The notes under the pieces were generated by a model that searched no databases, was not told where the DNA came from, and was given only the letters and a program-made list of their open reading frames with translations. Positions 19,918-34,823 of a stretch of DNA of 64,000 nucleotides are shown here, piece after piece. Each line of letters begins with the position of its first letter. The first letter of the stretch is position 1. Location: NCBI RefSeq assembly GCF_003610355.1, contig NZ_RAPY01000007.1, forward strand, positions 124,001-188,000. The letters run 5' to 3'. The position numbers and the translations under genes are program-made. This DNA comes from Sphingobacterium detergens (GTDB lineage: Bacteria; Bacteroidota; Bacteroidia; Sphingobacteriales; Sphingobacteriaceae).

Positions 19918-20313
19918 ATGAGCACATTACGTAACAAAGTACAATTAATCGGTCATTTAGGAAATGATCCTATCATCAAAACCACTTCAACAGGGACAAA
20001 TTACTCAGTTTTACGACTTGCCACAAATGATCTTTTCAAAAACAAAGCGGGTGAATGGGTTGAAGAAGTACAATGGCATACCCTTGTCATTTGGGGTAAG
20101 CAGAATAATACCATTGAAAAGAAATGTCGTCGCGGGACCAAACTAATGGTTGAAGGGAAACTTACCTATCGTAACTATGAAAATGCTGAAGGAATAAAAA
20201 CGTATATTACCGAAATCAAAGTTGACAGCTTTTTGATTCTATCAGATCAAACTTCCTCAAACGAGGATATTCCAGTACTACAAGAGGAGGATGAGGATGA
20301 GCTCCCATTTTAA
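19918..20313 (+). CDS. ssb: Single-stranded DNA-binding protein
   Basis: A 131-residue OB-fold protein: RNKVQLIGHLGNDPIIK at the start, WVEEVQWHTLVIWGK and GTKLMVEGKLTYRNY in the core, then an acidic tail ending DEDELPF, the C-terminal docking peptide for DNA repair and replication partners. It is shorter than E. coli Ssb because the linker is short. A second, essential ssb may exist elsewhere; many Bacteroidota have two. Confidence 0.93.
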   Translation: MSTLRNKVQLIGHLGNDPIIKTTSTGTNYSVLRLATNDLFKNKAGEWVEEVQWHTLVIWGKQNNTIEKKCRRGTKLMVEGKLTYRNYENAEGIKTYITEIKVDSFLILSDQTSSNEDIPVLQEEDEDELPF

Positions 20314-20327
20314 TTTAGGGATAAAAA

Positions 20328-20359
20328 GAAAGTAGGACATCTAACGTTGTCCTACTTTC
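20328..20359. terminator. Terminator between ssb and the convergent lipoprotein gene
   Basis: 11-bp perfect stem GAAAGTAGGAC / GTCCTACTTTC with a 10-nt loop. On the minus strand it is followed by TTTTTATC, a good fit for the 20378-20785 gene; on the plus strand the tail is only weakly U-rich. Confidence 0.8.
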
Positions 20360-20377
20360 CGCTTTATATCAAAAAAA

Positions 20378-20785
20378 CTATTTTGTTGCACTCGCAGTTA
20401 ACTCTGCTGCTAGCTTTTGAGCATACTCTGTCCATAGCTTTGCATCTTCCGGAGTTAATTTAGTAAGAGCAGTAGCTGTTTTTGTAGCCCACTCCTGTTG
20501 CTTTCCAGCTAACTCTTGGATTTTAGTCGCATCTCCACTTTTAGCAGCAGCAACATATTCATTCACATATTTTGTGTAATCGTCCGCCAACTGTTGTGCT
20601 TCTGGAGAACTAAACTTAGGCACTGCAGTAGTCGTAGTTGTTTCTGTTGTTGTTGTCTGCGCAACACCACCTTCAGTATCAGTTGTAGTGACTGTATCCT
20701 TTGTTTCTACTTTTTTGCTATCTGCATTATTACAAGAAGCAAAGAAAATTGCAGCAATTGCTGCAGATAATATCATTTTTTTCAT
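20378..20785 (-). CDS. Hypothetical lipoprotein, threonine-rich linker
   Basis: A 135-residue protein with lipoprotein signal MKKMILSAAIAAIFFASC (lipid Cys18), a Thr/Glu-rich low-complexity linker (about 35-55) and an amphipathic helical C-terminal domain rich in Ala, Lys and Glu. I recognise no family. It likely sits in the periplasm or on the outer-membrane inner leaflet. The next lipoprotein gene on the same strand is 190 bp upstream, not tightly linked. Confidence 0.7.
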   Translation of the reverse strand: MKKMILSAAIAAIFFASCNNADSKKVETKDTVTTTDTEGGVAQTTTTETTTTTAVPKFSSPEAQQLADDYTKYVNEYVAAAKSGDATKIQELAGKQQEWATKTATALTKLTPEDAKLWTEYAQKLAAELTASATK

Positions 20786-20976
20786 GAAACGAATAAGTTT
20801 ATAATAAATTAAAATTATTTACCAACTTAAATTTGGATTATTTTATTTTATAATCCAAATATATTTTTTCACAAAACAAATAAATATTAAAAAACCTCAG
20901 TTTTTCTCTTCCCCATGCGTTTAAGTTTAAATCTCCGATGATTGAAATAGCACCTGATTGTAACAAAACCATGGCT

Positions 20977-21429
20977 TTAATTACGATTCTGCTTCCTCCA
21001 GGCCTCCAAAGGAAGATACTCTCCAGAAACGATGTCCAGAATCTGGATATTCTTACAATCACTCTTATTCAAATAGAAATGATAGTAAGGTTCAAATCTT
21101 TCTTCACTATTATATCCAGCGGTAAGAGAATACAGCTCTCTTCCATCCTGTTTCAAACTATCGATCATGAACGAAATATTGGCTTTGTGATCAGTCAAGC
21201 TATCCAAGTTTCTTTTACTTTCCTCAACCTCTTTCAGCGCCAGGATTAATTTCATCGCCTCTTCTGTTGAACAACCTGCCATCTCGCCTATTTTGGCTGA
21301 GGTTTCAATTTGCTCTACAGCTGGTTTTTCAGGGATTTGGTCACTTTTTGCTTTAGTGGATGTATTGCTTTGACAACTGATAAAAGCAAGGAATGATATC
21401 AAAAGGACAAATAAGATCTGTTTTTTCAT
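20977..21429 (-). CDS. Hypothetical lipoprotein
   Basis: A 150-residue protein with lipoprotein signal MKKQILFVLLISFLAFISC (Cys19) and a Ser/Thr/Lys-rich linker. The mature part holds an alpha-helical stretch (EEAMKLILALKEVEESKRNLDS) and ends in a beta-rich C-terminus. No recognised domain. It is one of two unrelated lipoproteins in a row. Confidence 0.65.
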   Translation of the reverse strand: MKKQILFVLLISFLAFISCQSNTSTKAKSDQIPEKPAVEQIETSAKIGEMAGCSTEEAMKLILALKEVEESKRNLDSLTDHKANISFMIDSLKQDGRELYSLTAGYNSEERFEPYYHFYLNKSDCKNIQILDIVSGEYLPLEAWRKQNRN

Positions 21430-21661
21430 CTGTATAAATTATTTGTTCATCAATTATTTTTAGATTAACGTGTTATTCGTAAGTATTTATTTCCAATGGC
21501 ATTCATGAGCTCGTTTACCCATTAAATTGGTATTTTAAGGTATTCGTGAGCTCAATCATTCGGTTCTTCGGTTCGCTCGATTCACGCTGCTTTTGGCGCT
21601 ATAAGTGTTGATCTCATCAGTACAAATGAGCTGGTGTTTGGTCCCGATCACCAATGTTAAT

Positions 21662-22321
21662 CTATATTCTTTCAAATTTACCATACAATTTCCAAAAGTT
21701 TCCCTTCTCGGCCAACACAAAGTCGACTTTTTTCCAAGCGTTTAACACCAAACTTATTTCTCTTTCTACCATGGTATATTTCCCAATAAAGAATTCCTCT
21801 GCCGAAAAACACAGTCCAAAGGCATTATTTAGTGTATGCAGGCTTTCAATATCAATTTCTTCAAAAAATAGAATCGATTGTGCTGTTATGACAAAATCAC
21901 CTGGTACCGGTATAGCATCCATATACTCCATTGCTATAAAACGATTACGGCTTTGCAGCGGGAACTCAATGACCGGAAGTTCATTTAGTTTTGATACATA
22001 AGTACAAGCATCTAACAACACTTCTCGCTCCAACAACGGAACCTGCGACAGTCGCTTACCACCTAATGTAGGAATATCGGGCTGAAAATAGTCGTTAAAA
22101 TTGAGGATCTCATTAACGGATAGATTTTTTTCAATCAGATGCTGCACAGGAATGCCAAAATAATTTGCAATTTTCAAGACAATCTCGATTTTTGGTTCAG
22201 CACGCATCTCTTCGTAAGATGAAATATTACCTCTAGTAAGATTAAAAACATCTCCAAAAGCCTGTTGACTCAATCCTTTCACCTTTCTCAGCTTCTTAAT
22301 ATTATTCCCGACGTTACTCAT
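21662..22321 (-). CDS. XRE-family transcriptional regulator, probable local regulator of the PspA-flotillin cassette
   Basis: A 219-residue protein with an N-terminal HTH (residues 6-62; LSQQAFGDVFNLTRGNISSYEE) and a C-terminal domain with the strand pattern of the S24/LexA-like fold (AIPVPGDFVITAQS). No Ser-Lys peptidase pair is evident, so the C-terminal domain probably senses or dimerises rather than self-cleaves. It is divergent from the cassette at 22413; the shared 91-bp gap holds a perfect inverted repeat (22345-22363), a likely operator. Confidence 0.85.
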   Translation of the reverse strand: MSNVGNNIKKLRKVKGLSQQAFGDVFNLTRGNISSYEEMRAEPKIEIVLKIANYFGIPVQHLIEKNLSVNEILNFNDYFQPDIPTLGGKRLSQVPLLEREVLLDACTYVSKLNELPVIEFPLQSRNRFIAMEYMDAIPVPGDFVITAQSILFFEEIDIESLHTLNNAFGLCFSAEEFFIGKYTMVEREISLVLNAWKKVDFVLAEKGNFWKLYGKFERI

Positions 22322-22344
22322 TTTAAAAAAAAATTAATTTTTTC

Positions 22345-22363
22345 TTGCAAAATATTTTTGCAA
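22345..22363. promoter_or_regulatory. Inverted repeat, putative XRE operator
   Basis: TTGCAAAA-TAT-TTTTGCAA, an 8-bp perfect inverted repeat with a 3-bp centre. It overlaps the start of a possible plus-strand promoter (TTG at 22345 and TATCTTTA at 22369-22376, 21 bp apart), so a bound dimer would block the cassette promoter. It begins 24 bp upstream of the regulator's own ATG, so autoregulation is also possible. Confidence 0.6.
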
Positions 22364-22412
22364 TTCACTATCTTTATGCAAAGAATATGTGCAATATATA
22401 AAAAACTTGATT

Positions 22413-22802
22413 ATGTACTTCTCAAAAATTGAAAATTATATCGCCAATATCGGTTATAACATCACTCATAAAGATGAAAAAGAGGGTGTTTTTGTTATCG
22501 AAAACGAAGATGATGGTATTCGCAATCTCATTGTAGGTATTGCGCAGCCTATCATAATTTTCGAGCAGTACCTATTTACCATAAACAACGAAAACATGGA
22601 CATGTTCAAATCGTTGCTCATCAAAAATAGAGATATCATCCATGGCGGGTTTGCCTTGACAGAGGATGGCAAAAAGGTCATATTCCGATATACCATGCAA
22701 ATACATAATCTCGATCAAAATGAATTTGATGCGGCTATTAATTCGCTCAGTCTTTTGATCAGTGAATATTATAATCAGTTAATAAGTTTTTCAAAATTAT
22801 AG
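22413..22802 (+). CDS. YjfI / Tir-chaperone-like small protein, first gene of the PspA-flotillin cassette
   Basis: A 129-residue protein, MYFSKIENYIANIGY..., with a strand-helix pattern of the YbjN/CesT-like chaperone fold and a typical FALTEDGKKVIFRYTMQ segment. In enterobacteria the PspA paralogue YjfJ is preceded by YjfI (DUF2170), and this gene holds the same position; Bacteroidota homologues are often labelled 'molecular chaperone Tir'. The frame starts with GTG at 22389, but the ATG at 22413 is preferred. It is 4 bp from the PspA gene and likely binds or chaperones a cassette partner. Family assignment is by pattern, not by search. Confidence 0.6.
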   Translation: MYFSKIENYIANIGYNITHKDEKEGVFVIENEDDGIRNLIVGIAQPIIIFEQYLFTINNENMDMFKSLLIKNRDIIHGGFALTEDGKKVIFRYTMQIHNLDQNEFDAAINSLSLLISEYYNQLISFSKL

Positions 22803-22806
22803 AATA

Positions 22807-23514
22807 ATGAATATTTTTAAGAGAATTTTCAGAATCGGTCAAGCAGAAATCCACGCTGTAGTGGACAAAATGGAGGACCCCATCAAAATGACGGAACAAG
22901 GTATCCGTGAGATGAAAGAAGACCTAGAGCAATCGTTGGAAGCTTACGCAAAAGTAAAAGCGCTAGCCATACGTACGCAAAATAATTGTGAGAAGAAAAA
23001 AGAAGAGGCCAATGAATTTGAAAACAAAGCCATTTTATTATTGCAAAAGGCTCAAAAAGGCGACCTTTCTACAGAAAAGGCAGAGAGCTTAGCCAAAGAA
23101 GCCTTATTACTAAAAAAACAGTTATTGATCGAAGCCACCGAATTGGAAAAACAGGCGACGATCCATCAGAGTTCCGCAGAGGAGTTGCATAAAAATGTAG
23201 ATATACTTAAATTCAATATATCTAAATGGGAAAGTGAGCTATCAACCTTAAAAGCACGGGTTAAAGTATCCAATGCGGCTAAAATGGTCAACCGACAACT
23301 AGCCAACATTGATTCCAACAGCACCATTTCCATGCTGGAACGCATGAAGGAAAAGGTCGAAGAGGATGAGGCTTTGGCCAAAGCCTATGGCGAAATCGCA
23401 ACGGGCAACAAAAGTAGGATAGATGAGATCAATGAGAACATCGGTGGTTCGGACTCCGTCAACAATGAATTGGAAGAGTTAAAACGAAAATTAAATGGCG
23501 ATGCGGAGATTTGA
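22807..23514 (+). CDS. PspA/IM30 family protein
   Basis: A 235-residue almost entirely helical coiled-coil protein. N-terminal MNIFKRIFRIGQAEIHAVVDKMEDP carries the amphipathic membrane-binding helix and the conserved 'DPxKM' turn of PspA, Vipp1 and YjfJ, followed by long heptad-bearing helices. These proteins form ESCRT-III-like rods on damaged membranes. It overlaps the DUF4177 gene by 14 bp, showing tight translational coupling. The acidic tail and linkage to a flotillin place it in the YjfJ-type rather than the classic pspABC branch. Confidence 0.9.
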   Translation: MNIFKRIFRIGQAEIHAVVDKMEDPIKMTEQGIREMKEDLEQSLEAYAKVKALAIRTQNNCEKKKEEANEFENKAILLLQKAQKGDLSTEKAESLAKEALLLKKQLLIEATELEKQATIHQSSAEELHKNVDILKFNISKWESELSTLKARVKVSNAAKMVNRQLANIDSNSTISMLERMKEKVEEDEALAKAYGEIATGNKSRIDEINENIGGSDSVNNELEELKRKLNGDAEI

Positions 23515-23695
23515 GTATAAAACAGTCAAAATCGAGCCCAAAGGTTTCTGGGGGACCAAATTAGATCCGGACAAAATCGACGAGATCCTGAATGATCTAG
23601 GTAATCAGGGCTGGGAATTGGTTGCGATGCAAGACTTGGAGGTCAATGGTCACTCTTGGTCGTTTCATTACACGTTCAAACGAGAAAAAATTTAA
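23501..23695 (+). CDS. DUF4177-like small protein
   Basis: A 64-residue protein beginning MRRFEYKTVKIEPKGFWG, with the core NDLGNQGWELVAMQDL that defines DUF4177 domains. It overlaps the end of the PspA gene; the ATG six bases upstream (23495) is also possible. Small DUF4177 proteins recur next to envelope genes, but their role is unknown. Here the coupling suggests it is made in proportion to PspA. Confidence 0.75.
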   Translation: MRRFEYKTVKIEPKGFWGTKLDPDKIDEILNDLGNQGWELVAMQDLEVNGHSWSFHYTFKREKI

Positions 23696-23706
23696 AAGAA
23701 AATACG

Positions 23707-24429
23707 ATGACAGAATTAATCAATATCTTATTCAACCCATTATCAAATGGCATCATGACTGTCCTGACAGGACTTTCTGTAGTGTATTGGTTTTTTATGT
23801 TTCTTATGGGCGATGGTGTACATCTATTTGATGCGGATGCCGATATAGATCTACACCCTACTCCCGATGTCAGCGACGTAGATGGCTCGCATGATATGAA
23901 CGCTGATGGATCAGATCACCCACACCATCATACGGATTCCGATACGCATACCGAACCGGGCTTCTTTGCCAAGGCAATGGATTATATCAATGTCGGAAAA
24001 GTACCGATTATGCTTATTGTGACCATGTTTAAATTCATTGGCTGGGTGATCACCATTGTATCTTCATTGTATATTGACGTCGCATCCTGGGGAATAAAAT
24101 CGGTGTTGATCTTAATTCCTGTTTTTATCGTTACGTTTTTCTTAATGCATTTTCTGACCAAACCGCTCGCAAGAATGTTTAAAAATATTGGCTATAATGG
24201 CGAAGCAAGCCATGACTTCCTGGGTCGCATGGGAAAAATGCGCGCAAGTATTGAAGGCAAAAAAGTAGGTTCCGCTGAATTTATCATCCAACAAGACCCT
24301 ATCCGTCTCAATGTCGTGAGTCATAATGGTGAAAAGATCGGCTATGGGGATGATGTCATTATCGTGGACGAATCCAAGGACAAAAAATATTATTATGTTA
24401 CGAAGGAAATCACCATAGACAATATTTAA
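23707..24429 (+). CDS. YqiJ/NfeD-like OB-fold membrane protein
   Basis: A 240-residue membrane protein. TM1 (about 13-34) is followed by a 60-residue acidic and histidine-rich loop (repeated DAD, DVSD and HPHHHTDSDTH), two further TM segments (about 97-118 and 125-150), and a C-terminal OB-like domain (FLGRMGKMRASIEGKKVGSAEF...). This is the architecture of YqiJ, the NfeD-type partner encoded beside flotillin YqiK in E. coli. The HD-rich loop could bind divalent metal. The frame runs 17 codons further upstream, but ATG 23707 begins the TM1 unit. Confidence 0.82.
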   Translation: MTELINILFNPLSNGIMTVLTGLSVVYWFFMFLMGDGVHLFDADADIDLHPTPDVSDVDGSHDMNADGSDHPHHHTDSDTHTEPGFFAKAMDYINVGKVPIMLIVTMFKFIGWVITIVSSLYIDVASWGIKSVLILIPVFIVTFFLMHFLTKPLARMFKNIGYNGEASHDFLGRMGKMRASIEGKKVGSAEFIIQQDPIRLNVVSHNGEKIGYGDDVIIVDESKDKKYYYVTKEITIDNI

Positions 24430-24517
24430 AATTGAAGCGCAAAACAGAACCGCCTTGTCAGCCATAAGTTTGCACAAGAAAAATCTAAATACTAAAATCT
24501 AAATAAATACTAATCAT

Positions 24518-26632
24518 ATGCTATATCAACCTCTTTTATTTTTAAGTGGCTTAAACGGAATTATATTGCTAATTGTCGGTTTAGCTGTCTTTCTAATCTT
24601 TGCATTCTTCGTTGTACTGAGTGCATTCTATAAAAAAATCCCACAAGGAAAAGCGATTGTCCGGACGGGGGTCGGCGGGACAAAAGTTGCCTTCAATAAG
24701 GGGATGTATGTCGTCCCTGTTTTCCACAAGATGGAGATCATGGATATCTCCATCAAAAAAATTGAGATTGCCCGTATGCAGAGCGAGGGATTGATCTGTA
24801 AAGATAATATCCGTGCAGATATTAAGGTGGCATTCTTTGTTCGTGTCAACAAAAATGTAGATGATGTGATCAACGTTGCCCAGAATTTGGGCTGTGACCG
24901 TGCAAGTGAGCCTGAGACTTTAAAAAGCATCTTTGAATCTAAATTTTCTGAAGCGCTAAAGACCGTAGGTAAGAAATTCGATTTTATCGAATTGTATGAA
25001 GCCCGTCGTGAGTTTCGTGATGAAATCCTCAATATCATTGGTACCGACCTGAACGGTTATATCCTTGATGACTGTGCGATCGACTACCTGGAACAAACAG
25101 ATATCGAACACTTAAATCCCAGTAACATCCTGGATAGTGAAGGTATCAAGAAAATCACCGAGCTGACAGCAAAACAAAATATCAATGCCAACTTCATCCG
25201 TCGTGACGAAGAGAAATTGATCAAAAAGCAAAACGTCGAAGCACGTGAGGCGATTTTAGAACTTGATCGTCAACTTGCCGAAAAAGAAGAAAAACAAAAA
25301 CGTGAAATTGATAATATCAAGGCACGTGAAGAAGCTGAAATAGCAAAGGTACGTGAAGAAGAACGCTTGAAATATGAAAGCGTCCGCATTTCGACCGAAG
25401 AGCAACTGGCCGTACAGGAAGAAAATAAGCTGCGTCAGATAATCATCGCCGAGAAGAACAAGCAACGTACAGATGCTGTCGAAGCAGAACGTGTTGAAAA
25501 AGACCGTGCACTGGAACAAACCGAACGTGAGCGTATTGTTACCTTGGCTCAGATTGACAAAGAACGTTCTATTGAGACTGAGAAGAAAAGTATCCAGGGT
25601 GTGATCAAAGAGCGTGTCCAATTGGAAAAAGGTGTTATCGAAGAGCAACAAGGAGTCAAAGATATTGAAGTATTCCGCGAAGTAGAACGGAAGAAACAAG
25701 CAGGCGTTATTGCAGCATCACAAGAAGCCGAAGAGAAATTAATTTCTACAGTAAAAGCTGCTGAAGCAGCGAAAATTGCTGCAGAACAAGAAGCGGAGAA
25801 AAAAGTAATTGACGCTGAAGCAGCACGTAAGATCGCTGAAAAACGTGCACAGGAATTATTAATAGATGCCGAAGCGAAAAAAGAAGCGTCCCTCAAAGAG
25901 GCCGAAAGCCGTAAGATCATAGCGGAAGCACAAGCGAAAGAAGAAGCCGCAATAGGTTTGTCTGAAGCCGAAGTAATGGTTGCAAAAGCCGAAGCCGAAG
26001 AGAAGCAAGGCACTGTACAGGCAACTGTGATCGAGAAAAAAGCCGAAGCCATGCGCAAAGAAGGTTTAGCACAGGCGGAAGTTGTTCGTGAAAAAGCTCT
26101 TGCCGAAGCGAAAGGTATTGAAGAGAAAGCCGAGGCCATGAAAAAACTGGATGGTGTGGGTAAAGACCACGAAGAGTTCAAATTACAATTACAGAAAGAA
26201 CGAGACATTGAACTTGCACAGATCAATATCCAAAAAGATATTGCACAAGCACAGGCTGGTGTATTGTCCGAAGCGCTTAAAACAGCGAAGATTGACATCG
26301 TTGGTGGTGAAACCATGTTCTTCGAAAACATTGTGCGTCAGGTATCCAATGCCAAAGGTTTTGACCATTTGATCGACACTTCGAAACATGCAACTGATAT
26401 CAAAAATTCGCTATTGGGCCCAGACGGGAAAGGTGATCTTGCTGAAAAAGTACGTGGATTAGCAGATAAATATGGTATCTCATCGAATGATATCAAGAAC
26501 TTAACAGTTTCTGCAGCTTTGATCAAATTACAGCAAGCGGCCACAGATGCCGAGAACGGTGAAGATGCAGGTTTTATCAATTCCCTATTTGGATTGGCAA
26601 AAAACTTAGGCATTTCCAATAAAAAGCTGTAA
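24518..26632 (+). CDS. Flotillin family protein (YqiK-like)
   Basis: A 704-residue flotillin. Residues about 8-33 form a hydrophobic membrane anchor, then the SPFH/band-7 domain (KIPQGKAIVRTGVGGTKVAFNKGM...), then about 330 residues of Ala/Glu/Lys-rich coiled coil (about 230-560; repeated EAEAK/AEAxKxA), and a globular C-terminal part. Flotillins scaffold membrane microdomains. It follows the YqiJ-like gene by 88 bp, the same pairing as yqiJ-yqiK. The long antisense ORF seen opposite the coiled coil is a codon-bias shadow. Confidence 0.93.
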   Translation: MLYQPLLFLSGLNGIILLIVGLAVFLIFAFFVVLSAFYKKIPQGKAIVRTGVGGTKVAFNKGMYVVPVFHKMEIMDISIKKIEIARMQSEGLICKDNIRADIKVAFFVRVNKNVDDVINVAQNLGCDRASEPETLKSIFESKFSEALKTVGKKFDFIELYEARREFRDEILNIIGTDLNGYILDDCAIDYLEQTDIEHLNPSNILDSEGIKKITELTAKQNINANFIRRDEEKLIKKQNVEAREAILELDRQLAEKEEKQKREIDNIKAREEAEIAKVREEERLKYESVRISTEEQLAVQEENKLRQIIIAEKNKQRTDAVEAERVEKDRALEQTERERIVTLAQIDKERSIETEKKSIQGVIKERVQLEKGVIEEQQGVKDIEVFREVERKKQAGVIAASQEAEEKLISTVKAAEAAKIAAEQEAEKKVIDAEAARKIAEKRAQELLIDAEAKKEASLKEAESRKIIAEAQAKEEAAIGLSEAEVMVAKAEAEEKQGTVQATVIEKKAEAMRKEGLAQAEVVREKALAEAKGIEEKAEAMKKLDGVGKDHEEFKLQLQKERDIELAQINIQKDIAQAQAGVLSEALKTAKIDIVGGETMFFENIVRQVSNAKGFDHLIDTSKHATDIKNSLLGPDGKGDLAEKVRGLADKYGISSNDIKNLTVSAALIKLQQAATDAENGEDAGFINSLFGLAKNLGISNKKL

Positions 26633-26640
26633 CCATATTC

Positions 26641-26689
26641 ATCATCTTGAGCCTTTTAAAGAATCAAATCTTAACAGGCTCAAGATGAT
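26641..26689 (+). other. Long hairpin between flotillin and hydrolase genes
   Basis: A perfect 13-bp stem ATCATCTTGAGCC / GGCTCAAGATGAT with a 23-nt loop starts 8 bp past the flotillin stop and is followed by ACCC rather than a U-run. It is more like an mRNA-stabilising or processing element that sets the ratio of flotillin to the distal genes than a terminator. Confidence 0.5.
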
Positions 26690-26712
26690 ACCCTAAAAAC
26701 CAAAGTAATCAT

Positions 26713-28146
26713 ATGATTCGTTTTGTCCTATTTTCTATTTTCCTGTGCTTAAACACCCTGTTGGTAACTGCCCAGACGGTGCAGCAACGATTGGATTCAT
26801 TATTCCAATCCCTAAATCAGGACGGTGAATTCAGCGGAGCATTCTTGGTCGCCGATGGTGGAAAAGTTGTTTTTGAGAAATATATAGGTTTCGAAAACCC
26901 TGCAAAAACGAAAAAAATAAATAGCAATAGTCGTTTTGAATTGGCCTCGGTGAGTAAACAGTTTACAGCGATGGCCGTTATGCAATTGGAAGAACAGGGC
27001 AAACTCTCCTATGAGGATGATATTACCAAATATTTCCCACATATAAAATTCAAAAATGTCCGTATCAAAAATCTATTGCGTCATACCTCGGGAATACCGG
27101 AATTTTTGGCTTGGGATCAGCAATGGATTGACAAGAAAAAAATAAATACAAATCAGGACTTCCTCAAAATAATTGAGACAAAGATTGACAGCACCTCCTT
27201 TAAGCCAGGTGATCAATACACTTATTCGAATACAAACTACCTGCTTCTAGCTCTGATTGTAGAAAAAGTATCTGGGCAATCTTTTGCTTCCTATATGCAG
27301 CAGCATATATTCAAACCCGCCGGAATGAAAAACACGTCTGTATTTTCGGCGCGTTCATCCAATGCTGACCTTAAAAACTACGCAAAAGGAATGGCCTATG
27401 ATGCGAAGACCAAGAGCTTCAAAAGTGTTGATGACTTTCCCGCATTTAGCTATCTAACCTATTTTGATGGCGGAAGTGGCCCCTATGGAATAAGTAGTAC
27501 AGCTCAAGATCTCTTCAAATGGAATCAGGCTATCCAAAACAATACGCTATTAACGCGTCAAAATTTCATGAAGGCCATCTCTGTCGATACGCTCAATAAT
27601 GGCAAATCCATTAAAATGGCAGGTTTGTACTATGGTTTTGGCTGGCTCTTTACCGACAGTACCAACAGTGAAAGCAAGATGCATTTTCACAGCGGGGGAT
27701 ATCCAGGCTATAAAACGATCAACATTCGAGATTTTAAAGAACAAAAATATTTCATCGCTTTAATGAACAAATGGAATACGGTTGATGTATATCCGTTGAC
27801 ATCCGCTGTGAATGCAATTCTTCAAAAAAGAAAAGCTCCAGTTATTGAACGTGAAAAATTAACGGGAGCGATCATTCTTGTGGAGTTTCAGATCAAACAG
27901 CTTTTAGGGACATATGAATACACAAAACAACCTGAATTGAAGTTCAAAATTACAGCGGATGATAATGGTAGTCTATTTGCCCAGTTATCGGGACAGTCAG
28001 CCATCGAAGTCTATCCGAAAAACGAGTTAGAGTTATTTTATACGGCTGTGCAAGCCGAGCTGAAATTCAGCAAAGAAAATGATCAGATCACAGCGCTGAC
28101 GCTGTATCAAAATGGTCAGGAATTAAAATTCAATAAAGTTAAATAA
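26713..28146 (+). CDS. Secreted serine hydrolase (beta-lactamase fold) within the cassette
   Basis: A 477-residue protein with signal peptide (MIRFVLFSIFLCLNTLLVTAQ). Catalytic motifs: SVSK in ELASVSKQFTAMA, YSN in TYSNTNYLL, and HSG in MHFHSGGYPGY at the KTG position. The C-terminal domain (about 385-477) is an all-beta DUF3471-like module. It is unrelated in mechanism to the flotillin and PspA neighbours but sits 80 bp after flotillin and 20 bp before the ATPase on the same strand, so it is probably cotranscribed. Possible peptidoglycan- or ester-cleaving enzyme. Whether it belongs to the system or is an insertion is unclear. Confidence 0.85.
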   Translation: MIRFVLFSIFLCLNTLLVTAQTVQQRLDSLFQSLNQDGEFSGAFLVADGGKVVFEKYIGFENPAKTKKINSNSRFELASVSKQFTAMAVMQLEEQGKLSYEDDITKYFPHIKFKNVRIKNLLRHTSGIPEFLAWDQQWIDKKKINTNQDFLKIIETKIDSTSFKPGDQYTYSNTNYLLLALIVEKVSGQSFASYMQQHIFKPAGMKNTSVFSARSSNADLKNYAKGMAYDAKTKSFKSVDDFPAFSYLTYFDGGSGPYGISSTAQDLFKWNQAIQNNTLLTRQNFMKAISVDTLNNGKSIKMAGLYYGFGWLFTDSTNSESKMHFHSGGYPGYKTINIRDFKEQKYFIALMNKWNTVDVYPLTSAVNAILQKRKAPVIEREKLTGAIILVEFQIKQLLGTYEYTKQPELKFKITADDNGSLFAQLSGQSAIEVYPKNELELFYTAVQAELKFSKENDQITALTLYQNGQELKFNKVK

Positions 28147-28166
28147 GTCAAGAACTAGCGGAACTT

Positions 28167-31100
28167 ATGCCAGAAGAAAACGTAATAAATCAGAACGATA
28201 GCCTTGATCAAGGTGCATATGAGATTATCCGAAAGCGGCTTCTTACACAAAAAGAAGAACTAGCGACCAAGCTCCAACAGTTGAATGAAGCCCGTAAAGA
28301 AGTCTTCAATTCAACGAGCTTTGTCCTCAAAGCCAATCAACGGATCACCACAGAAAACAACTGTGTTGCCCGCGGCATTCTGGCCTTGGATAATCAATGT
28401 ATTTTTGGGTATAACGTGCATTTTGGACTGCGTACCGAGATCAAGCTGGAAGATGTTTTCAGTGTTTATGCATTTGAGAATAATCAATTTATTCCGCAGT
28501 CCCTCGACCTGATCAACGATCAAAATTTTATCTCAGATTATCAAAATCTATATAAATACTATAGGGACTCCATATTCTCCAAATTTCGTAGGACGGAGAA
28601 CTATTTGTATATGATCTTTCAGACCAGCAAAAATCCTGCTGACCTTAAAGCATTCAAATGGTTAATCAAAGATGGTAAGCTCCAATATCAGGATGACCGC
28701 AGCATTCATGAAGCCAAATTGCCCAACCAATTTGAATTTGACTGGACAAAAACAACGCTCGATGATCGCCGACTCGGAAAATATCCCCATATATCCATTA
28801 TGGATAAGATCTTTATTGAGGCAATCAATGGCGACATCACCTTCAAGATCGAAAACAATACAGACAGTGGCAAAGGGATCTATTCCGAAAAAGTGGTCAA
28901 TGCAGACCAACAATTGGACGATGCCGATTATTACTATGCAGATCTCGGCAATCTTATTGCTGTACGCATCAAACCCTACCAGGAAGATTTCAGGGCCTTT
29001 GTCTATAACCAACGGACAAAGGAAGTAATCAACCTCAAATCACTGAATGAATCAGCAATATTATTACCGGACAATCAAGGGATTATTTTTTCCAATGGAT
29101 ACTACTTACAAAATGGTACACACAAGGTTTTTGACGCCCAGTTTGAACATGTATCGTTCCTGCGTAGGATAGCCTCCCCAAATGGTGAAGATTTTCTGTA
29201 TATATTCTGTCAGGAGGAAACCAATACCTATATCCTACTGTCCTATAACATCATCCAACAGCATGTCGAAACCCCGATTATCTGCAATGGATTTACCCTG
29301 TTCAAAGATGGTAGCTTAATTTATTTCCGAACCGAGGCGGAAGCCACCAGACATCATCAGGTGCAGATCTGGGAAACACCTTATATGGCCATGCTCAAAG
29401 AAAATGAGCAGAAGAAAGATGATCCCCTTTATAAAGTAGGTAATAAACAAATCGTGCAGGCGATGGCCGAGGCACAGGAGGTCATACAACTGATCAACAA
29501 AGAAGACAGTTACGAAGGTTTATACGAAGATATCCTCAAAAAATCCACAGTTTTATTGGATTCCTATTTTTGGATAAAAGATGACGCCTTATCAAATCTT
29601 GGCCAGCCATTAACACAGATCAAGGAAGTCGCCAATACCGCTATTGATGAGTTCGTCAAAGTACAGGCGCAACGCAAACATGCAGCAGAATTAAATATAG
29701 CAGCAGAAAAAAAGATGGAAGAACTCACCTTCTCCATCAATAGTACTGTTGTAGACAAACTCGATCAGCTCGTCCATCAATTGGCCGACTCCCGTCGTCT
29801 TCAGGGTGAGATCATCGACCTTAAAAATGTAAAATATATTGATACGGTCAGGATAGATAGTCTGTTGGAAAAATTGCAGGGCATCACCTCCGAACTGGCC
29901 GAAAAAACCATTACTTTTCTCCTACGTGATGAAGCCCTGCTTCCTTACGAACAAAAGGTGGAACAGCAGAAGAAAAATGTGGAGGCCATAGTGAAGGTCT
30001 ACGATGCCAAAGCAATTGAGGAAGCCAATTCAGCCATTTCAAGCGAACTGGAACTATTGATTGATATCCTCAATAGTCTAAAAATTGACGACTCTACACA
30101 GACAACCAAAATCATTGAGAAGATTTCGGTTATTTTCTCCTCCTTAAATGAGGTTCGTGCACAGCTTACGCGAAAACTCAATTCATTGAAGAGTACGGAA
30201 GCGATAGCGGAGTTCTCAGCACAACTGACTCTGTTGGAGCAATCCGTGACCAACTACCTCGAACTGTCAACGACAACCGAAAAGGTAGACGAATATTACA
30301 CAAAAGTCATCGTTCAGCTGGAGGAACTTGAAAGTAAATTTTCTGAATTTGAAGATTTTGCCCTGAAGATCGCGGACAAACGTGATGAGGTTATCAAGGC
30401 CTTTAATTCCCGCAGGGAACAAATCGTTGAACAGATCAACAAGCGGACATCCTCGCTCGAACAGATCGGTCTTCGTGTATTAAAGAACATTGAAAACAAA
30501 TCCAAGACATTTGCAACGCGGGAAGAGATCCTTAGCTTCTTTGCCTCGGATCTGATGATCGACAAGATCAGACAGTTGGTACAGGAGCTAAAAACACTGC
30601 AGGATGTCTCAAAAGCAGAAAACCTTGAAAATCTATTAAAGAAATCACAGGAAGATGCCTTACGGGTTTTACGCGATAAAAATGATCTCTTTGTTGATGG
30701 CGAAAATATCATTGCACTGGGCAAGCATAAGTTTGCAGTCAATAGTCAATCCCTCAGCCTTACCTTGCTGCGCAGAAATGATGAACTGTATTTCCACCTC
30801 ACTGGGACAAGTTTCTATCAAAAGGTGCAGGCCGAGGAAATCAACAGTTTTCAGGACATCTGGGATCAGGAACTTGTCTCTGAAAATAAGGAAGTCTATC
30901 GTGCAGAATACCTTGCATACAAAGCTTTCGTTGCTTCAAAAGGAGAACAAGATTTTGATGCCGCATTATTTATCACACAGACTGTGGAGCAAAGTTATTC
31001 GGAAGGTTATGTCAAAGGAGTTCACAATGTGGATGCACTGTTGATCTATGATACGGTCAAACAGTTGGATACTAAATTGGATCTGCTTCGCTATGATCCC

Positions 31101-33011
31101 CTATTGCGTACGATGGCTCAGTTATTTTGGCAATCCCTTTCGGATGATCAACGGACAAAGCAGCTGGCACTGATACACTCGACATACACGATATTAAAAA
31201 CGTTTCCAAATTCAAATCGTTACCAGTCTGTCATTGATGAACTGACCAAGTTATTCAATGCATGGGAGACACATTTGGATCGCTCTACCATTCAGGGGCG
31301 CGACCTCGCGACTTACCTTTTTCAGACGTTTACAAGCTACAATACCTTTGTCGTCAGTGAACAATCCGATGAACTGAAAAAGGCTTTTATTCGATTGCTG
31401 GAATCCAAGAAAAGTTACAAGCTATTTGAAGCGGATATTCAGAACGAACAGTTTAGCTTGGTAGATCGCTTTTACCTGACCTTAAACTGGCTCAACTCCT
31501 TTGTGGATGAGCATCCGGAATATCTTACGCTACGCAAATATATCGAGGAAGCAGCGATCATGTTGCTTTATCCGACCCATGCGTATCACCTGATCATCGC
31601 AAAAGACCAGGCGCATATCAGCGGATTAAAAGGCAATCACCCGATCCAGAACAATGGAGAGGAACATATCCAATATCATGAGTTTTTAGCACGTCTGGCG
31701 CAATTCAGTGAGTATAATGTACCTCGTTTTGTGGCATTCTCCACATTGAAGGAACAACTTGCGAAGTCCTATGCCAAAGAACTAAAGATCGGTGAGTTTG
31801 AGCCCAAAGTACTGACTTCCTTTGTCCGTAATAAGCTGATCAACGAAGTTTACTTCCCATTGATCGGAAATAACCTCGCCAAACAGCTAGGAGCCGCAGG
31901 CGACAACAAGCGTACAGCCCGTATGGGAATGCTGCTGTTGATCTCGCCACCAGGTTACGGTAAGACCACCTTAATGGAATATCTTGCCAAAACGATGGGC
32001 TTACATTTCGTCAAAATCAATGGCCCGACCATTGGTCATTCGATTACATCCATTGATCCGATTGAAGCGAAAACATCCGGAGAACGGGAAGAGCTCAAAA
32101 AGATCAATCTTGCATTTGAGATGGCCGACAATGTCATGCTGTATTTGGACGATATCCAGCACTTAAATCCGGAGTTTTTACAGAAATTTATCTCCCTTGC
32201 CGATGGTCAACGTAAGATTGATGGTATTTTTGAGGGCGAGAGCAAGACCTATGACCTCCGTGGCAAGCGCTTCTGCATCGTGATGGCCGGAAACCCATAT
32301 ACAGAGAGCGGCTCTAAGTTTCAGATTCCCGACATGCTTGCCAACCGTGCCGACGTGTACAATCTCGGTGATGTGATCGGTGATACCGAAGCATTATTCA
32401 ACCTCAGTTTGATTGAAAATGCGGCGATTGAAAACAGCTACCTCGAAAAGATTGCAAGCAAATCATTTAATGACTTTTATGCCCTAGTCAATTATGCACA
32501 GTCTGTTATGGATCAATTGCCCGATTTAGAGGGCAACTACCTGAAACAGGATGTTGATGACTTTATCGCGGTGCTGCGACATGTACTGAAAATCAGAAAT
32601 GTCGTGATCAAAGTGAATCAGAATTATATTCAGAGTGCAGCGATGCAGGATAATTACCGCACCGAACCACCATTCAAAATGCAGGGATCCTATCGGAATA
32701 TGAGCAAACTGGTTGCACAGGTGGTACCAATGATGAATGAGCAGGAAATTGATCAGGTTCTTCTCGCACACTATGAGAGCGAATCGCAGACACTGACAAC
32801 GGATACCGAAAGTAACCTTTTAAAGCTAAAAGAGTTAGCCGAGCTGCTAAACCCTGTTGAACTGGAACGTTGGGAAACGATCAAGCAAATCTTCCGCAAG
32901 AACAATAAACATGGTGGACTGGCCAAAGACGATAAAGTATTCGGTCAGCTACTGGACTTCAATGAAAATCTGGAAGGCATTATTCAGGCGATCCGGGAGT
33001 ATAAGAATTAA
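28167..33011 (+). CDS. Giant coiled-coil AAA+ ATPase, DUF3686 type ('DNA repair ATPase')
   Basis: A 1614-residue protein. The N-terminal half holds a beta-rich region (about 50-440, DUF3686-like, annotated in related proteins as ATPase involved in DNA repair) and an extended coiled coil (about 450-850). The C-terminal third is an AAA+ module: Walker A SPPGYGKTTL near residue 1258, Walker B NVMLYLDDIQHL, and a sensor-1 region MAGNPYTESG. No signal peptide or TM segment, so it is cytoplasmic. It ends the cassette 20 bp after the hydrolase. Its real substrate is unknown; the neighbours suggest membrane work rather than DNA repair. Confidence 0.85.
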   Translation: MPEENVINQNDSLDQGAYEIIRKRLLTQKEELATKLQQLNEARKEVFNSTSFVLKANQRITTENNCVARGILALDNQCIFGYNVHFGLRTEIKLEDVFSVYAFENNQFIPQSLDLINDQNFISDYQNLYKYYRDSIFSKFRRTENYLYMIFQTSKNPADLKAFKWLIKDGKLQYQDDRSIHEAKLPNQFEFDWTKTTLDDRRLGKYPHISIMDKIFIEAINGDITFKIENNTDSGKGIYSEKVVNADQQLDDADYYYADLGNLIAVRIKPYQEDFRAFVYNQRTKEVINLKSLNESAILLPDNQGIIFSNGYYLQNGTHKVFDAQFEHVSFLRRIASPNGEDFLYIFCQEETNTYILLSYNIIQQHVETPIICNGFTLFKDGSLIYFRTEAEATRHHQVQIWETPYMAMLKENEQKKDDPLYKVGNKQIVQAMAEAQEVIQLINKEDSYEGLYEDILKKSTVLLDSYFWIKDDALSNLGQPLTQIKEVANTAIDEFVKVQAQRKHAAELNIAAEKKMEELTFSINSTVVDKLDQLVHQLADSRRLQGEIIDLKNVKYIDTVRIDSLLEKLQGITSELAEKTITFLLRDEALLPYEQKVEQQKKNVEAIVKVYDAKAIEEANSAISSELELLIDILNSLKIDDSTQTTKIIEKISVIFSSLNEVRAQLTRKLNSLKSTEAIAEFSAQLTLLEQSVTNYLELSTTTEKVDEYYTKVIVQLEELESKFSEFEDFALKIADKRDEVIKAFNSRREQIVEQINKRTSSLEQIGLRVLKNIENKSKTFATREEILSFFASDLMIDKIRQLVQELKTLQDVSKAENLENLLKKSQEDALRVLRDKNDLFVDGENIIALGKHKFAVNSQSLSLTLLRRNDELYFHLTGTSFYQKVQAEEINSFQDIWDQELVSENKEVYRAEYLAYKAFVASKGEQDFDAALFITQTVEQSYSEGYVKGVHNVDALLIYDTVKQLDTKLDLLRYDPLLRTMAQLFWQSLSDDQRTKQLALIHSTYTILKTFPNSNRYQSVIDELTKLFNAWETHLDRSTIQGRDLATYLFQTFTSYNTFVVSEQSDELKKAFIRLLESKKSYKLFEADIQNEQFSLVDRFYLTLNWLNSFVDEHPEYLTLRKYIEEAAIMLLYPTHAYHLIIAKDQAHISGLKGNHPIQNNGEEHIQYHEFLARLAQFSEYNVPRFVAFSTLKEQLAKSYAKELKIGEFEPKVLTSFVRNKLINEVYFPLIGNNLAKQLGAAGDNKRTARMGMLLLISPPGYGKTTLMEYLAKTMGLHFVKINGPTIGHSITSIDPIEAKTSGEREELKKINLAFEMADNVMLYLDDIQHLNPEFLQKFISLADGQRKIDGIFEGESKTYDLRGKRFCIVMAGNPYTESGSKFQIPDMLANRADVYNLGDVIGDTEALFNLSLIENAAIENSYLEKIASKSFNDFYALVNYAQSVMDQLPDLEGNYLKQDVDDFIAVLRHVLKIRNVVIKVNQNYIQSAAMQDNYRTEPPFKMQGSYRNMSKLVAQVVPMMNEQEIDQVLLAHYESESQTLTTDTESNLLKLKELAELLNPVELERWETIKQIFRKNNKHGGLAKDDKVFGQLLDFNENLEGIIQAIREYKN

Positions 33012-33025
33012 AACCATAAACTTAA

Positions 33026-33063
33026 TTTTTCTCCATTGGTCTATCCGAACCAATGGAGAAAAA
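33026..33063. terminator. Hairpin at the end of the cassette
   Basis: A 15-bp perfect stem TTTTTCTCCATTGGT / ACCAATGGAGAAAAA with an 8-nt loop, 14 bp past the ATPase stop and 60 bp past the convergent ynbC-like stop. T-runs lie within the stem, so it can serve either strand. Confidence 0.65.
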
Positions 33064-33122
33064 TAATTTATCAAATGATTTAGCAACGATGGTATCTACA
33101 GTCCTTTCGAAGCGGAATTACC

Positions 33123-34823
33123 CTACTTTACAGCTCCCGAAGAAACGGTAAATATTCCGTAATCGTCAATAAGCATCCGCTCTTTGATCACTCCATTGTA
33201 AGCCATAATCCGATCCAGTTCTTTCTGCGAACGTCGACGCATGACCCAGTCTTTCTTCTGATGACTGTTCAGCACATAAGCGATCATTTTCAATTGTGGA
33301 TGCCATGGCTGTCCGGTATAGACCAGATGGCTATTTTCCTCACAAATGGAAGTCGCACCATGTACCGCCCTGCTCGCCATTTCATTGTTGCCAAACAATT
33401 CGAAAATACCAGAGATCACCACAATATTAGGTTCAAAATCCAGTTTGCTGTAAGTCTCCGGATCAAAACAGTCGTAATTGCTGAAACGTATTCCTTGGAA
33501 CCCTTTCTTCTTGATGATTTTCTCTCCCACTGCAATATTTGACAACATAAACTCGTTGATCACGATCTCCACTTCCGGATATTTTTCTTTGATGTCAAAC
33601 AAATAATTTCCGGTACCGCCAGCGATATCCAGAATTTTCACAGGTCGGCCTGTAGACTCGACCTGCTCAATATTCTCTTCTAATAGACGTAATAGATGCT
33701 GTTTGCGTATACGGATTCCTTTCCAGCCGATCGCTTCCAAGTACCCTTTATCGATGACTTTACCCAGCCCCAACCTGCCTTTCGGTTCATTGCGATAGAC
33801 GTAATCCAATGAAATTCCCGAATCAAAACCAAACTGAAGCCCTAAGTTCATACCATGACTCAATGATCCGATCTTGCCTAAAGTCCATTTCTGAAAAGCA
33901 TAGTTAAGCTTCTCAGCCGCAGGCATCACCTTATGATACAATTTCTCATATTCTTTCACCGAAAACTCGTCAGGCTCCAGCCCCTGTTCAGGCTTTTGCC
34001 TTGCATAGGCTTTCGTAATAAAATCTTTTAAATAGGTATAGACTTTCTGTCTGTTGGATTCAAACAGGATACCATGATAAAAATTGCGTAGGGTAATAAA
34101 TGTCTTTAGCTTGGAAGCGATGGAAACGAAAAATTGCTTTTGCACCGAGTTTTTAACCACATAGTCCTTTTCAGCTGATAGCACAATCACGGGAATATCG
34201 ATTGCGGCTGCATCGTCTACGATACGCACACCAGCTTTCAATAGGTCGACCAATAAAGCGCCGTTAATGGATTTTGAGATTAGGGGATCGGCATCATAAG
34301 CCTGTTGTTGCTCAATATCATGGGTCAGTACCTTCGCCTTGACATAGCTTTGGATAACAAGATCCTTTTTCAGCTTGGTGCCAAGCGCAATCATCTGGTT
34401 GGCCAGTGGTACATACAGTTTAATTTCAAAGGCAGGAGCCAATAAAGCCATACCTGCGATCGGAGGAGCAAAATCATGTACCCAAGCACTCACAATGACC
34501 CCAGCAATACTATTGGCGATGACAAAGACATCCTTCGTATCAACCGCATATTCGGCATGGATATAGGCCACAAAACTGTCTAGATCGCGCACATTATCCA
34601 TGAAAACTGGTGATACCGGCACTTTGGTATGGCCATGTCCACGCAGATCAAATGCAAAGATGGAATAATCGGCAAACTGTGGATCGGTAGCCATCTCCTG
34701 CAGGCGTTCTGAATGTTCATGCCCACGGTGCAATACAACTAAAGCCTTTTGTCCCTTTTGATAATTCCAAACACGATATAGCAGTTCCCCTTGATCGAAA
34801 CTCTTAAAATAACCTGATTTCAT
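33123..34823 (-). CDS. Alpha/beta hydrolase fused to SAM-dependent methyltransferase (YnbC-like)
   Basis: A 566-residue bifunctional protein. The N-terminal half is a lysophospholipase-type hydrolase: LHRGHEHSERLQ, FAFDLRGHGHT, and nucleophile elbow ANSIAG (Ala-Asn-Ser-Ile-Ala, a departure from GxSxG). The C-terminal half (about 310-566) is a Rossmann methyltransferase with VKILDIAGGTGNYLFD and a NYDCFDPE acidic segment. This exact fusion is YnbC in the E. coli ynbABCD operon. It is last in the lipid operon, 97 bp after the phosphatase gene. Predicted to remodel and methylate a lipid headgroup or acyl chain; substrate unknown. Confidence 0.85.
   Translation of the reverse strand: MKSGYFKSFDQGELLYRVWNYQKGQKALVVLHRGHEHSERLQEMATDPQFADYSIFAFDLRGHGHTKVPVSPVFMDNVRDLDSFVAYIHAEYAVDTKDVFVIANSIAGVIVSAWVHDFAPPIAGMALLAPAFEIKLYVPLANQMIALGTKLKKDLVIQSYVKAKVLTHDIEQQQAYDADPLISKSINGALLVDLLKAGVRIVDDAAAIDIPVIVLSAEKDYVVKNSVQKQFFVSIASKLKTFITLRNFYHGILFESNRQKVYTYLKDFITKAYARQKPEQGLEPDEFSVKEYEKLYHKVMPAAEKLNYAFQKWTLGKIGSLSHGMNLGLQFGFDSGISLDYVYRNEPKGRLGLGKVIDKGYLEAIGWKGIRIRKQHLLRLLEENIEQVESTGRPVKILDIAGGTGNYLFDIKEKYPEVEIVINEFMLSNIAVGEKIIKKKGFQGIRFSNYDCFDPETYSKLDFEPNIVVISGIFELFGNNEMASRAVHGATSICEENSHLVYTGQPWHPQLKMIAYVLNSHQKKDWVMRRRSQKELDRIMAYNGVIKERMLIDDYGIFTVSSGAVK

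What the first reader, a model, noticed from the sequence alone, without database searches (positions are those of the whole stretch)
21662..33011. Regulated PspA / YqiJ / flotillin / giant AAA+ cassette: candidate membrane-maintenance system
Seven same-strand genes with short gaps or overlaps (YjfI-like, PspA, DUF4177, YqiJ-like, flotillin, serine hydrolase, 1614-residue AAA+ ATPase) face a divergent XRE regulator. The pieces separately are known in membrane repair and raft biology: PspA remodels damaged membranes and flotillin and NfeD/YqiJ form microdomains. A large coiled-coil AAA+ ATPase would be a natural power source for disassembling a PspA polymer, as Vps4 does for ESCRT-III. No such function is established for this set.
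Basis: partly seen in the sequence, partly recalled or inferred. Interest (0 to 1): 0.85.

Follow-up and report, generated by a model that had tools for sequence, protein, structure and literature searches.

The report
Flotillin–ATPase membrane cassette carrying PspA
This is a real gene cassette for looking after the inner membrane, of a layout already described in print, and comparing many genomes suggests that its giant ATPase is partnered first with the flotillin scaffold while the membrane-repair protein PspA is a frequent but optional add-on.

Summary
In detail: XRE(-) faces CesT/YjfI-like, PspA, DUF4177, YqiJ-like, flotillin, serine hydrolase and a 1614-aa AAA+ ATPase, in a Sphingobacterium. 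The set is not new: Ravi et al. 2024 (PMC11237479, section 19 read) describe CesT/Tir–PspA with band-7/flotillin, YqiJ and a propeller AAA+ ATPase. Of 80 related loci, 71 have readable upstream DNA; XRE/CesT–PspA–YqiJ–flotillin–ATPase stands in that order in 52, DUF4177 in 15, the hydrolase in 2. YqiJ and flotillin accompany the ATPase in 70 of 71 loci, PspA in 52. In 345 Bacteroidia genomes the flotillin is strongly matched in exactly the 15 with the ATPase. Five isolates keep an unsplit ATPase frame with no PspA match in the genome. The AAA model ranks closest to MoxR-type CbbQ/NorQ. Against this, all 15 ATPase genomes of the 345 also hold some PspA. Best reading: an XRE-controlled SPFH scaffold with its own AAA+ remodeller plus an optional PspA module. 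No function has been measured.

The parts
21662..22321 (-). XRE-type regulator, divergent; N-terminal HTH; in relatives the C-terminal part resembles an S24/LexA-like domain
   Evidence: HTH_3 1.7e-10; present in 52 of 52 readable loci with the CesT-PspA dyad; PF00717 Peptidase_S24 7.7e-07 (over its cut-off) in the orthologue of L114 and 3.3e-04 (under it) in that of L044; the window protein's C-terminal part has no Pfam match
22345..22363 (.). candidate XRE operator, inverted repeat TTGCAAAATATTTTTGCAA
   Evidence: 8-base arms, spacer 3; composition shuffles reach its score in 11 of 1000; a repeat of this type at the same distance from XRE in 15 of 54 loci scanned, with matched changes in both arms (TTGCTAATTATTTTAGCAA in L023 and L027)
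22389..22802 (+). CesT/Tir-like (YjfI-like) protein, first half of the CesT-PspA dyad
   Evidence: PF22550 2.7e-47; CesT and PspA both present or both absent in 71 of 71 readable loci
22807..23514 (+). PspA/IM30 (ESCRT-III superfamily)
   Evidence: PF04012 7.4e-46; only match in its own genome
23495..23695 (+). DUF4177 protein, clade-specific member
   Evidence: PF13783 4.6e-14; 15 of 71 readable loci
23707..24429 (+). YqiJ/NfeD-like membrane protein (start codon inferred)
   Evidence: YqiJ_N 0.04, below cut-off; TM-like stretches at residues 15-35 and 96-155; profile grown from it matches 70 of 71 loci
24518..26632 (+). flotillin (YqiK-type SPFH): N-terminal TM, Band_7, long charged helical region
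   Evidence: Band_7 1.7e-14 at residues 39-182; TM-like 1-42; 70 of 71 loci
26713..28146 (+). beta-lactamase-fold serine hydrolase with a hydrophobic N-terminus, likely passenger in the variable flotillin-ATPase slot
   Evidence: PF00144 2.1e-59; TM-like 1-23; 2 of 71 loci; the slot holds other genes, IS200-type transposases among them, in other loci
28167..33011 (+). 1614-aa ATPase: N-terminal helix and beta-propeller (1-480, DUF3686), middle part (DUF7902), C-terminal AAA+ domain (1190-1614) modelled nearest MoxR/CbbQ

Best explanation
The cassette is two modules behind one XRE regulator. Core module: YqiJ and the flotillin form a scaffold on the inner membrane, and the large ATPase, whose beta-propeller and long middle part are likely docking regions, is recruited to it and uses ATP to remodel the scaffold or membrane-protein clients gathered there. 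This would work like HflK/C with FtsH (SPFH assembly plus AAA+ motor), but without a protease and with an AAA+ domain that looks MoxR/CbbQ-like. Add-on module: the CesT-like protein and PspA, in Bacteroidota usually joined to the core, so that PspA can be held by the SPFH scaffold and coat a damaged membrane; the ATPase may also recycle it. XRE binds the inverted repeat at 22345-22363 and keeps the operon off until an unknown signal. Shown here: gene order, separability of the modules, domain folds (predicted), invariant ATPase motifs, recurring inverted repeat. Inferred: every physical interaction, the client, the signal, and repression.
For: Flotillin and YqiJ with the ATPase in 70 of 71 readable loci, CesT-PspA in 52 of 71. 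In 345 Bacteroidia genomes a strong flotillin match is in exactly the 15 ATPase genomes (Fisher 1.5e-26), even where flotillin and ATPase lie on separate contigs (G393); one further genome (G605) has a weak match, 1.7e-6. Flotillin directly precedes the ATPase in 11 of 11 plasmid-collection records read (of 12 found) from Bacteroidota, Pseudomonadota, Deinococcota and Actinomycetota, with PspA in 2. Of 17 genomes whose cassette lacks the dyad, 12 have no PspA over the cut-off anywhere, among them isolates of Myroides (2), Chryseobacterium (2) and Pontibacter (1) with an unsplit ATPase frame. Two Chryseobacterium lack the dyad inside a dyad-bearing clade and keep XRE, with ATPase dN/dS 0.046 between them against 0.061 and 0.038 in two dyad-bearing Chryseobacterium pairs. 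Conversely 7 of 30 checked genomes hold CesT and strong PspA without the ATPase, and none of the 7 has the flotillin; three of the 7 are under 90% complete. P-loop and other ATPase motifs are near-invariant in 80 aligned ATPases. Precedents: SPFH protein YdjI, with YdjG/H, is needed to bring PspA to the membrane in B. subtilis (PMC8581546, passages); HflK/C assembles around the AAA protease FtsH (PMC12048511, abstract).
Against: All 15 ATPase genomes in the 345-genome sample also have some PspA over the cut-off (Fisher 5e-15), so the link with PspA is strong. In three of them (G321, G393, G500), and in 5 of the 17 genomes, PspA lies elsewhere in the genome, as Ravi et al. suggested; in two of those 17 (L072, L087) a CesT gene is there too. 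Six of the 12 PspA-less genomes are MAGs, and a divergent PspA could be missed by Pfam. One locus (L075, same genome as G393) has the ATPase with no flotillin beside it. Sequence profiles put classical AAA (2.1e-9) slightly above AAA_5 (6.4e-8), and Foldseek ranks an archaeal Vps4 (2.2e-6) between NorQ (1.3e-6) and CbbQ (3.3e-6). No interaction was tested; ATPase residues 481-1189 were not modelled.
Confidence: 0.5

Rival explanations
1. Vps4 analogue: the ATPase mainly disassembles PspA polymers; flotillin and YqiJ only anchor it.
For: PspA is in the same operon in 52 of 71 readable loci and somewhere in all 15 ATPase genomes of the 345-genome sample; Ravi et al. propose ATP-dependent remodelling for PspA and Snf7 with other AAA+ partners; Foldseek lists an archaeal Vps4 among its best matches to the AAA model.
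Against: Of 17 genomes with a dyad-less cassette, 12 have no PspA over the cut-off; no visible loss of constraint on the ATPase there; no MIT domain found; in the VIA comparison the ten best rows are CbbQ/NorQ.
Confidence: 0.2
2. Membrane-protein quality control: the flotillin-YqiJ assembly collects unfolded membrane proteins and the ATPase extracts or refolds them; PspA only seals the membrane afterwards.
For: S. aureus FloA with NfeD stabilises unfolded proteins without ATP (as told in PMC13086221, passages; PMC11222466 itself seen only in a listing). MoxR-type CbbQ and NorQ, the nearest models, are remodelling ATPases (recalled).
Against: No client or protease is encoded in the core; rests on analogy.
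Confidence: 0.2
3. Anti-phage or mobile defence cassette.
For: Patchy distribution (15 of 345 Bacteroidia genomes; 8 of 296 in the phylum sample), plasmid carriage, an ATPase tree that mixes host families, XRE regulator.
Against: PADLOC gives HTH-model hits to XRE, JetB 5.7e-4 to the CesT-like protein and mad8 0.0074 to the ATPase P-loop region, and nothing to the other five proteins; genes and order match a published envelope-stress theme.
Confidence: 0.05
4. DNA repair ATPase, as Pfam and RefSeq name the family.
For: Names only: PF12458 description and record annotations.
Against: Adjacent to a membrane SPFH gene in 70 of 71 loci and 11 of 11 plasmid-collection records read; apart from DUF3686 itself and AAA-type P-loop families, no DNA-linked family over its cut-off.
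Confidence: 0.03

Closest known systems
CesT/Tir-PspA + band-7/flotillin + YqiJ + propeller AAA+ operon (Ravi et al. 2024, PMC11237479, section 19 read)
   Same: Same five core genes, same described ATPase architecture; the paper also notes abbreviated operons without PspA.
   Different: The paper suggests the abbreviated operons may use PspA encoded elsewhere; here that fits 5 of 17 such genomes while 12 have no PspA over the cut-off. A divergent XRE and its repeat are not mentioned in the section read.
E. coli yqiJ-yqiK / B. subtilis yuaF-yuaG (SPFH2 with NfeD-like partner; PMC2636767, passages)
   Same: NfeD-like membrane-protein gene in one operon with a flotillin.
   Different: No ATPase is mentioned in the passages read (the word ATPase is counted 0 times in that paper); here flotillin and ATPase co-occur in 15 of 15 genomes of the Bacteroidia sample.
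B. subtilis pspA-ydjGHI (PMC8581546, passages)
   Same: PspA and an SPFH protein in one stress operon; the SPFH protein is needed to bring PspA to the membrane.
   Different: The operon as named holds no AAA+ ATPase gene; YdjG/H are other membrane proteins.
HflK/C-FtsH (PMC12048511, abstract)
   Same: SPFH assembly paired with an AAA+ enzyme.
   Different: FtsH is a membrane protease (recalled in part); this ATPase has no TM-like stretch and no protease domain match.
ESCRT-III / Vps4
   Same: An ESCRT-III superfamily protein and an AAA+ ATPase in one operon.
   Different: No MIT domain found; AAA model nearest MoxR type in VIA; the ATPase also exists without PspA.
MoxR-type ATPases CbbQ and NorQ
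   Same: The ten best VIA rows for the AAA model, Z 17.2-14.8 over 227-252 residues.
   Different: Those act with a VWA-domain partner (NorD in the titles; CbbO recalled); none is among the eight cassette proteins. This one carries about 1200 extra residues.

Membership tests
CesT/Tir-PspA-flotillin-YqiJ-AAA+ operon (Ravi et al. 2024) | adjacent CesT/Tir and PspA genes | tested here: met
   PF22550 2.7e-47 and PF04012 7.4e-46, 4 bases apart
CesT/Tir-PspA-flotillin-YqiJ-AAA+ operon (Ravi et al. [quoted passage not shown]
   Band_7 1.7e-14, TM-like 1-42; coiled coil judged by eye from the sequence only
CesT/Tir-PspA-flotillin-YqiJ-AAA+ operon (Ravi et al. [quoted passage not shown]
   helix 15-47 then mainly strands to 403, pLDDT 89.6; WD40 and YncE propellers at Z 9.6-8.7 lead the list; AAA at the C-terminus
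CesT/Tir-PspA-flotillin-YqiJ-AAA+ operon (Ravi et al. 2024) | 3TM YqiJ/YuaF-like protein | tested here: inconclusive
   PF21001 0.04, below cut-off; TM-like stretches and position fit
PspA/IM30 | PF04012 over its cut-off along the whole protein | tested here: met
   156.9 bits against 33.9, residues 2-228 of 235
SPFH/flotillin | SPFH (Band_7) domain | tested here: met
   54.7 bits against 23.6 on residues 1-230; the whole protein gave no Band_7 hit
Vps4 | N-terminal MIT domain | tested here: not met
   no MIT family in Pfam scans of the whole protein or its pieces; the N-terminus is a helix and propeller. Residues 481-1189 were not modelled
Vps4 | classical (Vps4/meiotic-clade) AAA domain | tested here: inconclusive
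   Foldseek lists M. sedula Vps4 at 2.2e-6, rank 6; not among the 50 VIA rows, led by CbbQ/NorQ; PF00004 2.1e-9, PF07728 6.4e-8
Vps4 | disassembles ESCRT-III polymer | not testable with these tools
   needs biochemistry
MoxR-type AAA+ (CbbQ/NorQ) | AAA fold nearest to CbbQ/NorQ | tested here: met
   ten best VIA rows Z 17.2-14.8; next dynein 13.8; model pLDDT 82.2. PF07726 (AAA_3) only 0.048
MoxR-type AAA+ (CbbQ/NorQ) | VWA-domain partner gene | tested here: not met
   no VWA domain in the eight cassette proteins; so it is not filed as a CbbQ/NorQ system

The most novel reading that the evidence does not exclude
YqiJ, flotillin and a propeller-bearing, MoxR/CbbQ-like AAA+ ATPase form a self-standing SPFH-AAA+ machine, seen here in six bacterial phyla (Bacteroidota, Planctomycetota, Calditrichota, Pseudomonadota, Deinococcota, Actinomycetota), that remodels membrane proteins or microdomains without proteolysis; ESCRT-III-type PspA is a module plugged into it in most Bacteroidota and unplugged again in some.
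Probability: 0.4. Interest if true: 0.75.

Novelty: new member of a known kind. Interest (0 to 1): 0.5.

Why it matters
How bacterial ESCRT-III relatives are recycled, and what motor serves flotillin microdomains, are open questions; Ravi et al. write that it is unknown how PspA homologues without an associated AAA ATPase regulate assembly. This cassette puts PspA, an SPFH scaffold and a dedicated ATPase in one operon, and natural variants with and without PspA exist within one genus (Chryseobacterium), so which protein the ATPase serves can be tested directly. The genomic evidence redirects that test from PspA alone to flotillin.

Tried and rejected
Rejected: the serine hydrolase as a system part (2 of 71 loci). 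Rejected: DNA-repair role from the family name. Rejected: defence system on PADLOC evidence. Rejected as a general rule: Ravi et al.'s suggestion that abbreviated operons use PspA encoded elsewhere, though it fits 5 of the 17 genomes tested and G321, G393 and G500.

Led nowhere: viral contigs gave no relative of the flotillin; the solved-structure sequence search gave nothing for the flotillin and only P-loop-region matches for the ATPase; no Rfam match at 20000-35000; held papers with DUF3686: 0; with flotillin and 'DNA repair ATPase': 0. In the domain-by-domain comparison no region of the ATPase stood out as relaxed in PspA-less lineages, so no PspA-binding region could be pointed to. No Vps4 row appeared among the 50 VIA rows, which does not exclude that clade.

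CesT was sought in 30 chosen genomes of the 345, so the Fisher value printed for flotillin and the dyad is not used. One of 12 plasmid-collection records (H4, a second Proteus mirabilis) was not read.
Full report
What is there. A divergent XRE gene (21662-22321, minus) is followed on the plus strand by a CesT/Tir-like (YjfI-like) gene, PspA, a DUF4177 gene, a YqiJ-like gene whose likely start is 23707, a flotillin, a beta-lactamase-fold hydrolase and a 1614-residue ATPase. The flotillin gives no Band_7 hit as a whole protein, but its first 230 residues match Band_7 at 1.7e-14; the YqiJ-like protein is only weakly matched (0.04). The nearest named genomes are Sphingobacterium athyrii and, further off, S. 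multivorum. PspA is single-copy in the genome.

Conservation. I annotated their surroundings with profiles grown from the window's proteins. Nine loci are cut too short upstream. Of the remaining 71, 52 have XRE(-) CesT-PspA-YqiJ-flotillin-ATPase in that order and strand; 18 have YqiJ-flotillin-ATPase without CesT-PspA (two of these keep XRE, one has DUF4177); one has the ATPase alone. In these 71, CesT and PspA are both present or both absent. DUF4177 is in 15 and the hydrolase in 2. The gap between flotillin and ATPase is under 300 bases in 51 of 72 loci; in others it holds further genes, some IS200-like transposases, and the window's hydrolase sits in this slot.

Already in print. Ravi et al. 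2024 (PMC11237479; [quoted passage not shown] The cassette is therefore a member of a reported kind. The searches of the held library listed no paper that I recognised as a functional study of this ATPase; only the papers named in this report were opened.

Which protein does the ATPase belong to? Three tests. First, among 345 Bacteroidia genomes, DUF3686 occurs in 15, a strong match to the flotillin in exactly those 15 (a 16th genome, G605, has a weak match of 1.7e-6), and PspA over its cut-off in 45, including all 15. The dyad adjoins the flotillin or ATPase in 12 of the 15; in G321, G393 and G500 a lower-scoring PspA lies elsewhere and no CesT is found. CesT was sought in 30 of these genomes only; 7 of the 30 have CesT and strong PspA without the ATPase, and none of the 7 has the flotillin, though three of the 7 are 69, 74 and 88% complete. 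Second, of 17 genomes whose cassette lacks the dyad, 11 have no PspA match, one has a sub-cut-off match and 5 have PspA elsewhere; 8 of 8 comparison genomes with the dyad have one PspA over the cut-off, at the cassette. CesT is absent from 15 of the 17. Six of the 12 without PspA over the cut-off are isolates by record title; one of these (Dysgonomonas capnocytophagoides, L033) has a split ATPase frame, leaving five with an unsplit frame. Third, 12 plasmid-collection records hold the AAA domain, some of them chromosome-sized; of 11 read, one Bacteroidota and ten from Pseudomonadota, Deinococcota and Actinomycetota, all 11 have flotillin directly before the ATPase, 9 a YqiJ-like gene and 2 PspA: the Bacteroidota one (Hymenobacter) and pQBR103, where PspA heads a different, polyamine-linked gene set. 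The PspA profile used there was grown from Bacteroidota, and five of the 11 records carry no annotation for the stretch, so a divergent PspA could be missed.

Loss without visible decay. On a quick ATPase tree of 77 rows the dyad's presence changes at least six times (LG+G4, long-branch warnings apply, and the count cannot tell gain from loss). Two Chryseobacterium species, inside a dyad-bearing clade, lack CesT-PspA and have XRE next to YqiJ. Between them ATPase dN/dS is 0.046 and flotillin 0.020, against 0.061 and 0.038 (ATPase) and 0.015 and 0.025 (flotillin) in two dyad-bearing Chryseobacterium pairs; no ATPase region is disproportionately changed. Synonymous sites are saturated in the Myroides and Planctomycetota ATPase comparisons, so those give no ratio.

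The ATPase. No TM-like stretch. Residues 1-480 are predicted with pLDDT 89.6 as a helix followed by a beta-propeller, matching WD40 and YncE propellers at modest Z (9.6 and below). The C-terminal model (pLDDT 82.2) has CbbQ and NorQ as its ten best VIA rows (Z 17.2-14.8), then dynein (13.8). Foldseek alone mixes MCM, RuvB, NorQ, Vps4 and CbbQ at similar E-values, and Pfam slightly prefers classical AAA to AAA_5, so the clade is favoured rather than fixed. The stretches SPPGYGKTT, DDIQH, GNPYTE and PDMLANR are near-invariant in 80 aligned sequences, as expected of a working ATPase; their naming as Walker A, Walker B, sensor 1 and arginine finger is mine from general knowledge.

Control. An inverted repeat TTGCAAAATATTTTTGCAA lies at 22345-22363 between XRE and the operon. 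Equal or better repeats arise in 11 of 1000 composition shuffles, weak alone; but a repeat of this type recurs at the same distance from XRE in 15 of 54 loci scanned, all near the window in the ATPase tree, with matched changes in both arms in Chryseobacterium (TTGCTAATTATTTTAGCAA, L023 and L027) and Moheibacter (AATGCTAAAAATATTAGCATT, L042). The other 39 loci do not show it at that place. Two orthologous regulators match the S24 family in their C-terminal part, one over and one under its cut-off; in the window's protein that part has no Pfam match, and the residues usual for self-cleavage seem to be absent (recalled pattern, alignment).

Reading. The simplest account is an SPFH scaffold (YqiJ, flotillin) with its own AAA+ remodeller, to which a CesT-PspA repair module is often coupled, all behind one XRE. 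SPFH recruitment of PspA is known in B. subtilis (PMC8581546, passages; also noted in PMC10936438 and PMC9239133, passages) and SPFH-AAA+ pairing in HflK/C-FtsH (PMC12048511, abstract and outline). I give this 0.5. The Vps4-like account is not dead, because PspA and the ATPase co-occur in all 15 sampled genomes, but it cannot be the ATPase's only job if the PspA-less isolates are what they seem.

Noticed in passing
L033:10001-14848: The ATPase frame of Dysgonomonas capnocytophagoides is split in two, a possible pseudogene or assembly error; left out of the functional count.
   Followed up: partly
L017:10001-17244: The tblastn match to the ATPase in S. athyrii spans 7244 bases though the gene is 4845; a downstream remnant may exist.
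   Followed up: no
L107:1359-14563 (plasmid pQBR103): The flotillin-ATPase pair stands behind YjfI-PspA-rhomboid-DUF2491-DUF350-DUF1190-glutathionylspermidine synthase, a different PspA gene set.
   Followed up: partly
L045:3734-4045; L025:6839-7087: The slot between PspA and YqiJ holds other small proteins in other loci: YbjQ_1 (2.1e-38) in an Aquimarina and a PLDc_N-like protein (1.9e-6) in Sphingobacterium chuzhouense, in place of DUF4177.
   Followed up: partly
L110:6809-7243 and L116: In two Streptomyces plasmids flotillin-ATPase has no YqiJ match; L110 has a 144-residue protein in its place.
   Followed up: partly
PF12458 (DUF3686): Pfam describes the family as 'ATPase involved in DNA repair' and records call it 'DNA repair ATPase' although its constant neighbour is a membrane SPFH gene; the name looks misleading.
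   Followed up: partly
G393 (L075, L098): ATPase and flotillin are on separate contigs, the only readable locus of 71 in which they are not neighbours.
   Followed up: partly
L070, L080, L096 (Planctomycetota): ATPase frames run longer than in Bacteroidota, with an unexamined C-terminal extension.
   Followed up: no
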